This document shows positions 53,601 through 58,848 of a stretch of DNA of 64,000 nt, piece after piece. The notes under the pieces are model-generated. The model worked only from the letters and a program-made list of their open reading frames with translations. It ran no database searches and was not told where the DNA came from. How positions within the stretch are numbered: position 1 is the stretch's first letter; the number at the start of each line of letters is the position of its first letter. A program made the position numbers and the translations under genes. The stretch comes from Nautilus pompilius (lineage: Eukaryota > Mollusca > Cephalopoda > Nautilida > Nautilidae), in NCBI GenBank assembly GCA_018389105.1, contig JACATO010002130.1:434001-498000 (forward strand), read 5' to 3'.

Positions 53601-56600
53601 CTGGTGAATATTCCAGCTTCTTTGTCTATTTAAGATTGGTAAGTTTGTTACAGAAAGCTTTACTTCATTTTCTTCAAGGTGTTGTGATTGAAATATTTTT
53701 ATAATTCAAATGGTATAGGATTTTGTTAAATTGTATTCTCTTCATGTACATGAAAATCAAAATTAAACTTGTATCATGTTTATTACTTTGAGACAAGTCT
53801 AATCAGAAAAATCACCCATAATTCTTCTGCAGCTGCTTTACTATTTGATGCAAAAAAAATTCCCAAGAAACTAGAATGTTGAGAAGGATTGACATTATTT
53901 TTAATTCATTTTTATGGATTTTTAAACATGCCAAACAAATTTTAACATAACTTGGCCAGCTTGCATTGCTGTGAAGGTTGTGGAGTTTTATGTACTAGAT
54001 ACTGTACTTTATTAGACATTCTAGTTAAAAATGTCTAGTACTGTCCTATCAGGTTTACAAAGCCATATTTATTTGTAATATTATACATTGAAAATTTAAT
54101 ATAATAAACTCATTTGGATTAATAAAGCAGTAAAGAAAAATTATACTATGCTCATGTCTTTTTTTTTTCTTCAGAATATTTAATTTTTGTTGATATTTCT
54201 TGTCAGTGCTTTTAAATTAATACTGTTTTGAAATTAGTTATGCAAGATATATTTGAAAAGATATGCACCATGACTAATTATTTCTTTCTTTTCCTTTTAA
54301 GGTAATGAAATTTTCAGCTCAAGAAGTTGCATCATTTATTGCAGTTGTAGGTGTTTTATCAGTTGTAGCACAGGTGAGATTTTTGCTTTGCAAGAAATGT
54401 TTTCAGCAATTGAAATGAAATGACAATCAGTAAAATGGTTGATTAAAAATGCATGGATTTTAATGGTATTAACAATTGTGTGTGATATTGAATGAAATGT
54501 TATTGTTGTAAGTTTTAGCTTATTTGCTACAAAAAAAGATAAAAGCAATCATAAAGAAATAAGAAATTCTGTTGTTTTCAGACACTGGTGCTCACCTTAT
54601 TAATGAAATATCTTGGCCACAAACAGTCTATTATGTTTGGTCTTGTGTTTGAAATGGTACAGCTGGCTTGTTATGGCTTTGGATCTCAGACCTGGTATGA
54701 AACAACAACTTTTTAATAACTTCTGTTGACTAAGATGACCATCTGTCACCCCTACTTGATAATCTCTGACACTATGCAATCATTGTTTCTATTACTGAAT
54801 CAAATTTGCATACAATTTTTTTTAAATACAAGCATACCTCGGGGATATTGCGGGTTCGGTTCCAGACCACCGCAATAAAGCGAGTCACACCCATTTTTTT
54901 GGCTTCCCAGTGCATATAAAAGCCTAAAATAATGTTTACACTATAGTCTATTAAGTGCACAATAGTGCTAGGTCTAAAAAAACAATGTACTGTAAAATTA
55001 AAAATACTTTATTGTTAAAACTGCTAATCTTCATCATCTGAGCCTTCAGTGAATTGTAATCCTTTTTTGCTGGTGGAGAGTCTTGCCTCGATGTTGATGG
55101 CTGTTGACTGATCGGGGTGCTGGTTGCTGAAGGTTGGGGTGGCTGTGGCAATTTCTTAAAATAAGACAACAATGAAGTTTGCCGCATTGATTGACACTTC
55201 CTCTCACGAAGGATTTCTCTGTTGCATGAGATACTGTTTGATAGCATTTTACCCACAGTAGAATTTCTTTTGAAATTAGGGTCAATCCTCTCAAAACCTG
55301 CCACTACTGTATCAACTAAGCCTATGTAATATTCTAAATCCTTTGTTGTCATTTCAACAATGTTCATGGGATCTTCGCCAGGAGTAGATTCCATCTCAAG
55401 GAATTATTTTCTTTGTTCATCCATAAGAAGCAACTCTTCATCCGTTAAAGTTTTATCATGAGATACCAGCAATTCAGTCACTTCTTCAGGCTCCACTTCT
55501 AGTTCCAGTTCTCTTGCTATTTCCACCACATTTGCAGTCACTTCCTCCACTGAAGTCTTGAACATTTCAAAGTCAACCATGAGGGTTGGAATCAACTTCT
55601 TCCAAACTCCTGTTAATGTTGATATTTTGACCTATCATGAATCACAAATGTTCTTAATGCTTTCCATAAGGTTTTTAATTTACTTTGCCAAGACCCATCA
55701 GAGGAATCACTATCTATGGCAGCTATAGCCTTACGAAATGTCTGTCTTAAATAATAAGACTTGAAACTCAAAATGACTTTTTGATCCATGGGCTGCAGAA
55801 TGGATGTTGTGTTAGCACGCAGGAAAACAACATTAATCTTGTCTTACATCTCCATCAGAACTCTTGGGTGACCAGGTGCATTGTCAATAATCAGTAATAT
55901 CTTGAAAGGAACCTTTTTTTCTGAGCAGTGGGCTTCGACAGTGGGCTTAAAATATTCGGTAAACCACATTGTAAACAGATGTGCTGTCATCCAGGCTTTG
56001 TTGTTCTATTTATAGAACACAGGCAGACTAGATTTAGCATGATTCTTGAAGATCCTAGGATTTTCAGAATGGTAAATGAGCATTGGCTTCAACTTGAAGT
56101 CACCAGCTGCATTAAACCCTAACAAGAGAGTCAGCCTACCCTTTGCAGCTTTGAAGCCAGGCATTTATTTCTCCTCTAGCTATGAAAGTCCTCAGTGGCA
56201 TCTACTTCCAAAATAGACTGGTTTTGTCCACATTGAAAATCTGCTGTTTAGCGTAGCCACCACCTTCAATTATCTTAGTGCTCGTCTGGATAGCTTGCTG
56301 CAGCTTCTACATCAGCACTAGCTTTTTCACCTTGCATCTCTACGTTGTGGAGACGACGTCTTTCCTTAAACCTCATGAACCAACCTCTGCTAGCTTCAAA
56401 CTTCTCTTCTGCAGCTTTCTCACCTCTCTCAGCCTTCATAGAATTGAAGAGAGTTAAGGCCTTGCTCTGGATTAGGCCTTGGCTTAAAGGAATGTTGTGG
56501 CTGGTTTGGTCTTCTATCCAGACCACTAAAACTTTCTCCATATCAGCAATAAGGCTGACTTGCTTTCTTATCACTCTTGTGTTTACTGGAGTAGCACTTA

Positions 56601-58848
56601 ATTTCCTTCAAGAACTTCTCCTTTGCATTCACAACTTGACTAACTGTTTGGTGCATGAGGCCTAGCTTTTGGACTATCTCAGCATTCGACATGCCTTTCT
56701 CACTAAGCTTAACCATTTCTAGCTTTTGATTTAAAGTGAGAGATGTGCGACTCTTCCTTTCACTTAAACATTTAGGGGCCATTGTAGGTTATTAATAGAC
56801 CTAATTTCAATATAATAACAATGAAAAAGTTTGAAACACTGCGAGAATTGCAAGAATGTGACACGGAGACACGAAACGTGCAAATGTGGTAAGCAAAATG
56901 GTGCTGATCAATGTGATGTTACTGCCAAAAACCATCAGAAGGAGGCATGTTCTGAAAAAAATAAACATGAATAATTTGAAAAAAGTGCAATATCTGTGAA
57001 ACACGATAAAGCGAGGTATGCCTGTACTTATGCTGTTGTTGTTGTTGCTTTAGGTATAATTAAAATGTTATAATTTAGTTACTGGTTTATATATATATAC
57101 TTTTTAAAGCAGATGTGGCATCAGTATGTACTGCCTTTGGGTAATGAATCTGTTTGAACTCTTTCAGTAGAATAATACTTCACTAGTTTCAAGAAAAAAT
57201 ACAAGCTTTTTAAAAATTTAATGAATCTTTTTTCAATAATTCTTATTTTTGCTTTCACAATTTTAATGCATATTTCATTTGTTTTTAATCTGCTGCATTT
57301 CCTTTATACGTTTTAATAATAATAGGCATAACATTGTAATAATTTTGTTCATACACAATTGACATTTAATTGAAATGGACTTGGTATTCTTCAATTTTTA
57401 TTTTATAGAAATGTAGTAGTTTTTTGTCTGTGTGGTCTGGCTCTAATCTGTTGTTAATGTGAGCGTTTCACAAATGTTCAGTAATGATATTTATTGTATG
57501 CTTAAATGTTTATAGAACTGAAGCAGCTTTTTTAAAAATTAATAATTATACCTTGAAAAGAGAAATGTATATTTGTTTTTTGTTTTTGAATTATTATTTG
57601 CACTTTGTTCTAATTAAATTGTTTTGCATGCTTCATTACGGACATCTCCATTAAATAGATTGCTATCTTTTTTCTGTTCAACAGAACTTACTCATTTATT
57701 TTTTTAATAGTGCACTAACTAAATGTAAATACCTTTTTCTTTTAAAATAAATTTGTAAATTTTTAGAAAAATTACAATTTTTGGATGGTAACTATGAAAG
57801 TTTTTTTTTCTTCCCAGGATAATGTGGGCAGCAGGTGCTATAGCAGCAATGTCTAGCATCACTTACCCAGCTATCAGCGCATTTGTTTCTGCACATGCTG
57901 AAGCAGATCAGCAAGGTTTGTAAATAATTTTTATTTTAATAAATTTTGATAACATTTTAAAATTGTAATTTTCTTGTTAACTTTAAAACAAATCCTGTTG
58001 TTCTTTTGTTTCAGGTGTGGCACAGGGTATGGTGACTGGTATACGTGGTCTGTGCAATGGACTGGGTCCAGCTTTATATGGTTTTATATTTTATCTCTTT
58101 CATGTAGATTTAAATGAGACATCAGACCTAATAAAAACAAAAGTTGACTCTGCAGTTAACTCTTCTCATCCTGCCAGTCAAAACACTATTTTGGTAAGTG
58201 GTTTTATAAAACATTGCAAATGATGACGACTCAGAAAAGTGACTTCTTATAAAAGCCAATCTATTGTGAGGTGATAGTATATAAATGCAAATTAATGTGT
58301 TCTTTAAACAATTTTAATTTTCGAAAATTAATGAGCGATTTTTTTTTAGAAAGCCATTCTCAGCCTGTTTTCAGTCTAGTTATCCACAAGTTGAGAAGAA
58401 CATTTATTTCACTACACACAATAATTTAAATATCTATTTTCATTAAAAAACTATTATAAATGATTTAAAATTAAGCTTGATTTGCTATTATTTTTAGTTA
58501 AAGATAGTTCCTAGAAATGACATGACTTTGTTAAACATTAATTTTGGTTGAGTTGACAGATACTGTTCATTCACTTTCATGATACAGCAGGAAAACTGTT
58601 TATTATTTTATATTGGATTCTGTGATTATGGAAGTATAATTTTATAGATGATAAAATAATTTCCTCAATTTTAGTTTGATTTATTTAACAGAATATGGTA
58701 CCAGGTCCACCATTTGCATTTGGAGCCATACTGGTGATTTTGGCATTACTTGTGGCAATCTTCATCCCAGAAAATCCACATAGCTCTGGTATTAAATCTC
58801 CAACTAAAAGAATAGTGATGGCTTTTGAAACATTTCAAAAGGATCCAG
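44562..58848 (+). CDS. MFSD14A: MFSD14 (HIAT1-like) major facilitator transporter, last exon missing
   Basis: Orphan 12-TM solute carrier of the major facilitator superfamily, orthologous to vertebrate MFSD14A/MFSD14B (hippocampus abundant transcript), which sit in intracellular membranes. The substrate is not established. Exons: 44562-44645, 46271-46366, 47763-47825, 48566-48693, 49015-49129, 53044-53262, 53525-53638, 54302-54373, 54582-54694, 57818-57915, 58015-58193, 58692-58848. Phases agree throughout and give 479 complete codons plus one base; human MFSD14A is 490 residues, so only a short tail is missing. Diagnostic segments: [37 protein letters not shown] (MFS motif A), [56 protein letters not shown]-like [10 protein letters not shown]. 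An in-frame TGA at 44,556 fixes the start at 44,562, or at 44,568 for the second Met. The exact paralogue symbol is uncertain, as invertebrates usually have one gene. Confidence 0.95.
44724..44752. repeat. Polypyrimidine (TCCC)n/(TC)n tract
   Basis: 29 bases of C and T only except at the edges, about 80 bp past exon 1. Confidence 0.9.
44947..44992. repeat. Polypurine (GA)n/(GGGA)n tract
   Basis: A G/A run with only two interruptions by T, about 200 bp from the CT tract and roughly complementary to it. Confidence 0.88.
46271..46366 (+). CDS. MFSD14A: MFSD14 exon 2 (TM1)
   Basis: Encodes [20 protein letters not shown], the first membrane helix. Acceptor TTTTTTAG; donor GTAAGT; 32 codons, phase 0. 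The longer open frame 46,159-46,665 is intron read-through. Confidence 0.95.
46367..47762. other. MFSD14 intron 2, nothing recognised
   Basis: AT-rich sequence. The - strand frame at 47,515-47,727 shows no family resemblance. Confidence 0.5.
47763..47825 (+). CDS. MFSD14A: MFSD14 exon 3
   Basis: 21 codons, [20 protein letters not shown] to K, the loop and start of TM2, nearly identical in character to the vertebrate [20 protein letters not shown]8 begins an NHT glycosylation-like sequon. Confidence 0.95.
47826..48565. other. MFSD14 intron 3, nothing recognised
   Basis: AT-rich sequence; no gene or classifiable repeat seen. Confidence 0.5.
48566..48693 (+). CDS. MFSD14A: MFSD14 exon 4 (TM2-TM3, motif A)
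   Basis: Encodes [19 protein letters not shown], the MFS motif A loop with conserved D and R, then [13 protein letters not shown]. It ends in a split tryptophan codon before GTAAGT. Confidence 0.96.
49015..49129 (+). CDS. MFSD14A: MFSD14 exon 5 (TM3-TM4)
   Basis: Encodes [20 protein letters not shown] and [18 protein letters not shown]. The following 3.9-kb intron contains a pogo-type and a Tc1-type relic. Confidence 0.96.
49340..50900 (-). mobile_element. pogo/TIGD4-6-like transposon relic
   Basis: The - strand carries a CENP-B/DDE-type transposase in pieces. [16 protein letters not shown] at about 50,870 is the N-terminal CENP-B helix-turn-helix. [17 protein letters not shown] at about 50,340 follows, then [13 protein letters not shown] near 50,200 and [20 protein letters not shown] at about 50,130 (second catalytic D). 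The C-terminal [20 protein letters not shown] at about 49,900 matches TILDAIxxVxxAWxxV. The left end is probably near 49,345 (CAGTAAACCCTGAGACTA, a pogo-like terminus). The right terminus was not found. It is frameshifted and antisense to MFSD14. Confidence 0.82.
50901..51899. other. MFSD14 intron 5, between two relics
   Basis: AT-rich with A runs near 51,490. It may include the lost 5' end of the pogo-type relic. No gene seen. Confidence 0.45.
51900..52745 (-). mobile_element. Tc1-like transposon relic
   Basis: The - strand at about 52,650-52,600 reads [16 protein letters not shown], an HTH-like N-terminus. [14 protein letters not shown] follows near 52,470, and [13 protein letters not shown] near 52,240 matches HGGGNVMVWGCFS. 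The frame has stops throughout. Terminal repeats were not established. Confidence 0.65.
53044..53262 (+). CDS. MFSD14A: MFSD14 exon 6 (TM5-TM6)
   Basis: Largest coding exon, 73 codons: [19 protein letters not shown], then [20 protein letters not shown] and [10 protein letters not shown], the central cytosolic loop. Donor GTAAGT. Confidence 0.97.
53525..53638 (+). CDS. MFSD14A: MFSD14 exon 7 (TM7)
   Basis: Encodes [20 protein letters not shown] and [18 protein letters not shown]. 38 codons, phase 0. Confidence 0.97.
53639..54301. other. MFSD14 intron 7, nothing recognised
   Basis: AT-rich sequence; no gene or classifiable repeat seen. Confidence 0.5.
54302..54373 (+). CDS. MFSD14A: MFSD14 exon 8 (TM8)
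   Basis: 24 codons, [20 protein letters not shown] to VVAQ, matching IMKFSPESVAAFIAVLGILSIIAQ. Donor GTGAGA. Confidence 0.95.
54582..54694 (+). CDS. MFSD14A: MFSD14 exon 9 (TM9)
   Basis: Encodes [18 protein letters not shown] and [17 protein letters not shown], ending in a split W codon. The Tigger element is inserted 135 bp into the intron that follows. Confidence 0.95.
54827..54828. repeat. Tigger TA target duplication, left
   Basis: TA immediately before CAAGCATACCTCG, paired with 57,025-57,026. Confidence 0.85.
54829..57024 (-). mobile_element. Tigger (pogo-type) transposon closely resembling mammalian Tigger1
   Basis: A 2,196-bp element with both ends intact: CAAGCATACCTCG on the left, CAGGCATACCTCG inward from the right, flanked by TA at 54,827-54,828 and 57,025-57,026. 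The - strand transposase starts at 56,782 ([12 protein letters not shown], then [18 protein letters not shown], the CENP-B N-terminal HTH). It shifts frame near 56,560 to [20 protein letters not shown] and [17 protein letters not shown] (CENPB DNA-binding half). The DDE region at about 56,270-55,600 is interrupted. The end is [20 protein letters not shown] (55,595-55,404), one in-frame stop, then [15 protein letters not shown] and [20 protein letters not shown] to near 55,000. Stops and frameshifts make it inactive. From memory, both DNA and protein are strikingly close to the Tigger1 consensus of mammals. Confidence 0.95.
57025..57817. other. MFSD14 intron 9 after the Tigger element
   Basis: AT-rich with a short (TTG)n run at about 57,034-57,048 and a polypyrimidine tract before the exon 10 acceptor. 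Confidence 0.55.
57818..57915 (+). CDS. MFSD14A: MFSD14 exon 10 (TM10)
   Basis: Encodes [20 protein letters not shown] and [12 protein letters not shown], matching MMWAAGAVAAMSSITFPAVSALVSRTADADQQ. Donor GTTTGT splits a glycine codon. Confidence 0.96.
58015..58193 (+). CDS. MFSD14A: MFSD14 exon 11 (TM11)
   Basis: Encodes [20 protein letters not shown] and [14 protein letters not shown], then a variable luminal loop with NETS and NSSH sequons. Donor GTAAGT. Confidence 0.97.
58692..58848 (+). CDS. MFSD14A: MFSD14 exon 12 (TM12), last one seen
   Basis: Encodes [20 protein letters not shown] and [13 protein letters not shown], then a cytosolic tail to QKDP. It ends before GTAAGT with one base of a codon. 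Read-through would stop shortly after, so a further exon beyond the window is likely but intron retention cannot be excluded. Confidence 0.93.

What the first reader, a model, noticed from the sequence alone, without database searches (positions are those of the whole stretch)
54829..57024. A Tigger1-like element of mammalian type in an invertebrate-looking genome
The element has exact pogo-type ends, TA duplication and a damaged transposase. Its DNA and protein look very close to the Tigger1 consensus known from mammals, far closer than vertical descent between an invertebrate and a mammal would allow. It sits inside an intron between two good MFSD14 exons, so a simple contaminating read is unlikely. 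Horizontal transfer, from a shared source into both lineages, is the natural explanation.
Basis: partly seen in the sequence, partly recalled or inferred. Interest (0 to 1): 0.85.

Follow-up and report, generated by a model that had tools for sequence, protein, structure and literature searches.

The report
Mammal-type Tigger1 transposon in chambered nautilus
A jumping gene thought of as a fossil of mammal genomes is also present, in dozens of decayed copies, in the genome of what is probably the chambered nautilus, which points to its having crossed between very distant animals.

Summary
Confirmed. Window 54829-57024 (minus strand) is a degenerate, nearly full-length Tigger1-type pogo transposon with a TA duplication, inside an intron. 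It is one of at least 37 loci on 33 contigs of its genome. The host is a mollusc, probably Nautilus pompilius: two clusters of seven molluscan hemocyanin units and 727.6 Mb against a published 730.58 Mb. The 26 aligned copies form a near-star, mean K2P 0.050 to their consensus. They decay neutrally (nonsynonymous/synonymous 2.56 against 2.62-2.74 expected), and all 26 carry frameshifts. The only mammalian reference in the tools, Rfam mir-1261, whose human locus lies in Tigger1 (PMC7345915), matches full length: E 1.1e-13, 67/82 identical, though below Rfam's gathering score. Horizontal transfer is well supported. The nautilus burst (roughly 14-50 My) looks younger than the eutherian one, so a third-party reservoir is likelier than direct exchange. 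Tigger transfers between phyla were already known; my searches found no report of this one.

The parts
54829..57024 (-). Tigger1-type pogo DNA transposon, degenerate, nearly full length (family consensus 2212-2227 bp)
54827..54828 (.). TA target-site duplication, left
57025..57026 (.). TA target-site duplication, right
54829..54851 (.). terminal inverted repeat (3' end of the transposase strand), 2 mismatches to the family end
57012..57024 (.). terminal inverted repeat, other end (CGAGGTATGCCTG)
55024..56656 (-). remains of the transposase reading frame (552-aa open frame in the indel-keeping family consensus; 7 stops and several frameshifts here). The N-terminal part reaches further upstream in copy L018, where CENP-B_N and HTH_Tnp_Tc5 are recognised; DDE_1 is recognised in L027 and L040
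56463..56547 (+). stretch matching Rfam mir-1261 (RF04055), whose human locus is annotated as Tigger1; not a microRNA gene call
   Evidence: (E 1.1e-13, 71.5 bits, below the gathering score of 91)
54582..54694 (+). exon before the element, MFSD14-like (name recalled)
57818..57915 (+). next exon after the element, in frame with the previous one

Best explanation
This is a dead copy of a cut-and-paste pogo-type DNA transposon of the Tigger1 lineage. An active Tigger1 element entered the germ line of an ancestor of this cephalopod (probably Nautilus) from outside. Its transposase cut the element out at its inverted ends and put it into TA sites, doubling the TA (mechanism from established knowledge of the superfamily; the TA duplications are shown). 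It multiplied in what looks like one burst to a few dozen copies, then stopped, and all 26 copies examined have since decayed without detectable selection. The same lineage entered the ancestor of placental mammals earlier. Between the two hosts the transposase evolved under purifying selection, as expected of an element kept alive by transposition in some other host. Shown: family, copy number, ends, TA duplications, star-like burst, neutral decay, resemblance to a mammalian Tigger1 locus. Inferred: horizontal transfer, the reservoir, the dates; the selection between hosts rests on a recalled sequence.
For: At least 37 loci on 33 contigs, 82-90% identical to the window copy in their largest pieces. 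TA on both sides in 11 of the 12 copies complete at both ends. Mean K2P to consensus 0.050, range 0.039-0.075, pairwise distance 0.92 of the star expectation (26 copies). Nonsynonymous/synonymous 1334/521 = 2.56 against 2.62-2.74 expected without selection; 26 of 26 copies carry frameshifts; outside CpG the coding and non-coding parts diverge alike, 0.0364 and 0.0385. CENP-B_N, HTH_Tnp_Tc5 and DDE_1 domains. Rfam mir-1261 full-length match, E 1.1e-13, 67/82 identical; 32 matches genome-wide, all 32 within the family loci, out of 56 candidates scored; miR-1261 is listed as DNA_Tigger1 (PMC7345915). Lead from memory: recalled Tigger1 consensus 93.9% identical over 2161 bases; dS 0.130, dN 0.031, ratio 0.24 over 425 codons. 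Yardsticks: N. pompilius to the mollusc L. gigantea 4.97 substitutions per fourfold site (PMC8257504); a highly conserved MSH2 ATPase stretch is 60/77 identical to the solved Msh2.
Against: The only mammalian sequence that came from a tool is an 82-nt Rfam consensus, matched below Rfam's gathering score (71.5 against 91). The host name is inferred from size and hemocyanin layout. No relative was searched for presence or absence, so patchiness is untested. Raw divergence is higher in the non-coding part (0.060) than in the reading frame (0.044); this goes away outside CpG. PMC9219625 already lists Tigger in 8 mollusc species, in clusters that also hold vertebrates. PMC8967140 compared cephalopod repeats with Dfam, found Tigger hits, and judged vertical descent equally likely for the elements it discusses.
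Confidence: 0.87

Rival explanations
1. Mammalian DNA contaminating the assembly, or chimeric contigs.
For: The element is very like a mammalian repeat, and mammalian DNA is a common contaminant (general knowledge).
Against: At least 37 loci on 33 contigs up to 5.75 Mb; flanks have mean G+C 0.33, range 0.24-0.44 (36 loci); TA duplications; exons either side of the window copy join in frame; the family consensus differs from the recalled mammalian one at 133 of 2173 sites.
Confidence: 0.02
2. Vertical descent: the family was in the common ancestor of molluscs and mammals and was strongly conserved.
For: Tigger elements occur in many animal phyla, molluscs included (PMC9219625). PMC8967140 thought vertical descent as likely for cephalopod elements with Dfam hits.
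Against: The 26 copies decay neutrally and are about 5% from their source, whereas neutral host sites are saturated even within molluscs (4.97 per fourfold site). The mir-1261 consensus is nearly as close to the nautilus family (67/82) as to the recalled mammalian consensus (69/82).
Confidence: 0.05
3. Direct transfer from a mammal (or a mammal's parasite) into the nautilus lineage, rather than separate invasions from a third source.
For: Eutherian genomes hold many Tigger1 copies (PMC3517439).
Against: Eutherian Tigger1 expanded before about 100 My ago (PMC3517439), while the nautilus burst dates to about 14-18 My at the published rate and 38-50 My at an assumed 1e-9. Mammals would have had to keep an active copy for tens of millions of years. 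No ecological link is known to me.
Confidence: 0.2
4. Transfer in the other direction, from a nautiloid to mammals.
For: None specific.
Against: The nautilus burst is younger than the eutherian one at both rates tried, though a rate well below 1e-9 would remove this. The copy number found is small.
Confidence: 0.03

Closest known systems
Tigger1 of placental mammals (pogo superfamily of Tc1/mariner-like DNA transposons)
   Same: CAGGCATACCTCGG ends (mammalian ends recalled), TA duplication, CENP-B/Tc5/DDE_1 transposase, DNA match to the Tigger1-derived mir-1261 locus; about 94% identical to the recalled consensus
   Different: Host is a cephalopod. Family consensus is about 2.2 kb, lacking a 196-base and a 17-base stretch of the recalled consensus (6 of 26 copies keep bases near the 17-base stretch). 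Only 37 loci found, and no short derivatives with the same ends were seen (26 of 26 listed end matches lie in the known loci). Apparently younger burst.
Tigger horizontal transfers between Eutheria and arthropods (PMC9219625)
   Same: Tigger elements more alike than host genes across phyla
   Different: That study reports Eutheria-arthropod as its only transfers between phyla (section 3.3 read). Its main text does not hold the words nautilus, cephalopod or octopus, but it lists Tigger in 8 unnamed mollusc species; its supplement was not readable here
TcMar-Tigger repeats of cephalopods with Dfam hits (PMC8967140)
   Same: N. pompilius is among its species; Tigger is among the DNA families with the most Dfam matches
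   Different: Passages read do not single out Tigger1 or mammals; the authors lean to vertical descent; its supplement was not readable here
Mariner_Tbel transfers between mammals and ants (PMC3517439)
   Same: Near-identical DNA transposon consensus in mammals and invertebrates
   Different: Different transposon family and host pair; TIGGER1 was used there as an older age marker (passages read)

Membership tests
pogo/Tigger superfamily | Transposase with CENP-B_N, Tc5-type HTH and DDE_1 domains | tested here: met
   on open pieces of copies L018 (first two domains), L027 and L040 (DDE_1), all above Pfam cut-offs; not on the broken window copy itself
pogo/Tigger superfamily | Terminal inverted repeats starting CAGG and TA target-site duplication | tested here: met
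   TA on both sides in 11 of 12 copies complete at both ends (the window copy's left end reads CAAG)
Tigger1 | DNA similarity to a mammalian Tigger1 locus | tested here: met
   Rfam mir-1261, 82 nt full length, E 1.1e-13, 67/82 identical (below Rfam's gathering score)
Tigger1 | At least 80% identity over at least 80% of the library consensus | tested here: inconclusive
Horizontally transferred element | Element far more similar than host genes | tested here: inconclusive
   dS 0.13 (recalled reference) against saturated host sites (within molluscs) and 60/77 identity in conserved MSH2; no direct host-mammal dS
Horizontally transferred element | Phylogeny incongruent with hosts | not testable with these tools
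   no collection of other eukaryote genomes was offered
Horizontally transferred element | Patchy distribution among relatives | not testable with these tools
   as above; the viral and prokaryote collections gave no relative

The most novel reading that the evidence does not exclude
The Tigger1 lineage did not die when it fell silent in early placental mammals. It stayed active for tens of millions of years in unknown, possibly marine, hosts and invaded a nautiloid within roughly the last 50 million years, so living or recent Tigger1 should be findable in other sea animals.
Probability: 0.5. Interest if true: 0.75.

Novelty: new member of a known kind. Interest (0 to 1): 0.6.

Why it matters
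Tigger1 is treated as an age marker for early placental mammals. Finding the same family in a cephalopod would show that it was not a purely mammalian lineage and that it travelled between animals with no obvious contact. It gives a second, roughly dated point from which the route and the reservoir can be sought, and it warns against taking Tigger1-like repeats as proof of mammalian contamination.

Tried and rejected
Mammalian references: scans of viral contigs for the 29-base end (0 hits) and for a 326-aa transposase piece (1 pattern match, not confirmed); scans of genome contigs for that piece (19 pattern matches, none confirmed) and for the 22-base end (0 hits). The N-terminal transposase piece of L018 has no solved relative better than CENP-B (E 0.11). 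Rfam at gathering score found nothing in the window or three copies; at E up to 0.01 mir-1261 was found in 5 of 5 further or repeated copies.

Host yardsticks: two MSH-type exons from the window match best MSH3, MSH2 and MutS in the PDB, so there is no MSH5-human distance. The MFSD14-like exon has no PDB match. Twenty window ORFs gave no Pfam hit. 18S rRNA was asked for twice without an answer, then dropped.

Idea dropped: that an 11-base deletion carried by 14 of 25 scorable copies marks a subfamily. No column splits with it, and it occurs in all four combinations with a 1-base indel (read by eye).

Full report
What is there. Window 54829-57024 holds a transposon on the minus strand. Its ends read CAAGCATACCTCGG...CGAGGTATGCCTG and it has TA on both sides. 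The transposase is ruined: seven in-frame stops and several frameshifting indels relative to the family's reading frame. It sits in the intron between exons 54582-54694 and 57818-57915, which splice in frame. The label MFSD14 for these exons is recalled.

It is a family, not a stray. A search of the host genome with the element returned 49 matching pieces, which I grouped into 37 loci on 33 contigs, the window included. The tool scored only 40 of 94 candidates, so this is a lower bound. An independent scan for the 23-base end with up to 2 mismatches listed 26 sites, and all 26 lie in those 37 loci, so no population of short derivatives with intact ends was seen. The family's first bases are CAGGCATACCTCGGAGATATTG; 11 of the 12 copies complete at both ends (window included) have TA on both sides, the other has TA and TC. 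Two loci, L024 and L035, differ by 1.4% and share identical first 300 bases, so they are a duplication of one insertion.

Host. The genome has 727,640,739 bases in 2558 contigs; the window is 31% G+C. Mollusc hemocyanin (PF14830) hits 14 times, in two clusters of seven on contigs C557 and C1362. Seven units per subunit is the layout of octopus and nautilus, whereas gastropods have eight (recalled). Mitochondrial fragments read in the invertebrate code look molluscan by eye. The published Nautilus pompilius assembly is 730.58 Mb and is described as the smallest cephalopod genome sequenced at that time (PMC8257504, passages read). I take the host to be N. pompilius or a close relative; no call names it.

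Dating the burst. I aligned 26 near-complete copies of the 37 (the other 11 are fragments or interrupted). K2P to the majority consensus averages 0.050 (range 0.039-0.075), or 0.038 outside CpG sites; pairwise distances are 0.92 of the star expectation. Of 1561 CpG positions examined, 645 have become TG or CA and 84 something else, as expected under methylation. At the paper's synonymous rate of 2.77e-9 per year the mean distances give about 14-18 My; at an assumed 1e-9 they give 38-50 My. The published rate is for coding synonymous sites, so the date is rough.

Decay without selection. Across the 26 copies the open frame has 1334 nonsynonymous and 521 synonymous differences from the consensus, ratio 2.56. 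The expectation without selection is 2.74 from the non-coding spectrum and 2.62 from the whole element. The raw pN/pS is 0.70. The reading frame is less diverged than the non-coding ends (0.044 against 0.060), which could have meant constraint; outside CpG positions the figures are 0.0364 and 0.0385, so CpG content explains most of it. Every one of the 26 copies has at least one frameshift relative to the consensus frame.

Is it Tigger1? Open pieces of other copies carry CENP-B_N, HTH_Tnp_Tc5 and DDE_1. Rfam contains a mammalian Tigger1 sequence by accident: mir-1261, whose human locus is listed as DNA_Tigger1 (table passage of PMC7345915). It matches the window full length with E 1.1e-13, 71.5 bits, with 67 of 82 bases identical and a 3-base insertion. 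Its local alignment score to the element is 80, against 26 for the rest of the window and at most 29 for 200 shuffles of the query. The score is under Rfam's gathering threshold of 91, and nothing passed that threshold, so this is not a microRNA gene call. Genome-wide, 32 matches reached E 0.001 among 56 scored candidates (of 86,160 first-look candidates), and all 32 fall in the family loci.

A lead from memory. To test whether I was merely echoing the window, I looked at the 100 sites where the window copy differs from its family: the recalled text sides with the family at 85, with the window at 10 and with neither at 5. It is 93.9% identical to the nautilus consensus over 2161 bases, 95.1% outside CpGs. 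Its longest open frame is 454 aa, shorter than the nautilus one, so it is not error-free as a coding sequence. Over 425 comparable codons of that frame dS is 0.130 and dN 0.031, ratio 0.24, well below the 0.70 seen among the decaying copies. The mir-1261 consensus agrees with the recalled consensus at 69 of 82 bases and with the nautilus consensus at 67 of 82. These figures must be repeated with the deposited entry. In this comparison the nautilus family lacks 196-, 17-, 15-, 10- and 5-base stretches of the recalled consensus and has stretches of 39, 7, 3 and 3 bases that it lacks.

Why horizontal transfer. Neutral sites are saturated within molluscs alone: 4.97 substitutions per fourfold site between N. 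pompilius and L. gigantea. A very conserved stretch of MSH2 from this genome is 60 of 77 identical to the solved Msh2. Neutrally decaying DNA cannot have stayed within about 6% of a mammalian family since the ancestor of protostomes and deuterostomes. Purifying selection between the two consensuses, against neutrality within the nautilus copies, is the pattern expected of an element kept working by transposition in other hosts.

Source and direction. Eutherian Tigger1 expanded after the marsupial split and before about 100 My ago (PMC3517439, passages read). The nautilus burst looks younger. If the mammalian consensus dates to about 90-100 My and the nautilus one to about 18 My, some 70 My or more separate them, and dS 0.13 corresponds to about 1.8e-9 per site per year along that path, a reasonable value (my arithmetic). 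This favours a shared reservoir over direct exchange, but it rests on the recalled sequence and on one published rate.

What is known. Tigger transfers across animals are documented. PMC9219625 (abstract, passages and section 3.3 read) finds Eutheria-arthropod as its only transfers between phyla; it also lists Tigger in 8 mollusc species, which the text I saw does not name, so I cannot rule out that a relative of this family is among them. PMC7325037 (passages read) places Tigger1 in its own pogo clade, apart from Tigger2. PMC8967140 (passages read) found Dfam hits for cephalopod Tigger repeats and thought vertical descent as likely. Searches for Tigger with Nautilus, for Tigger with horizontal transfer and cephalopod, for nautilus with horizontal transfer and transposon, and for Tigger1 with mollus, and two on Tigger1 and horizontal transfer, showed no report of Tigger1 in Nautilus in their listings or in the passages I opened. 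The library holds only open-licence papers, and supplements could not be read.

Verdict. It is a new instance of a known phenomenon, in an unexpected pair of hosts and with a timing that asks for a hidden reservoir.

Noticed in passing
L010, L011, L012 and many further places listed (117 matching pieces): Mitochondrial COX1 fragments recur with the same internal breakpoints (profile positions about 103-196, 196-283, 281-346, 374-436), many on small contigs, as if one rearranged nuclear mitochondrial insert had itself been multiplied.
   Followed up: no
26 aligned Tigger1 copies, alignment columns 1601-1611 and 1331: An 11-base and a 1-base frameshifting indel, each carried by about half of the copies, occur in all four combinations, with no linked substitutions for the 11-base one. 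This suggests recombination or gap repair between active copies, or spread of defective copies in trans.
   Followed up: partly
26 aligned family copies: About 41% of consensus CpG positions have become TG or CA (645 of 1561), a strong methylation-type decay for an invertebrate.
   Followed up: partly
L009 1501-2241: A COX1 stretch of about 231 profile positions, open in code 5, is embedded in a 1.18-Mb contig, apparently a fairly recent nuclear insert.
   Followed up: no
PMC9219625 section 3.3: One mongoose genome, Helogale parvula, mediates most of the mammal-fish and many of the mammal-arthropod Tigger transfers in that study, which looks more like contamination of that assembly than biology (my inference).
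   Followed up: no
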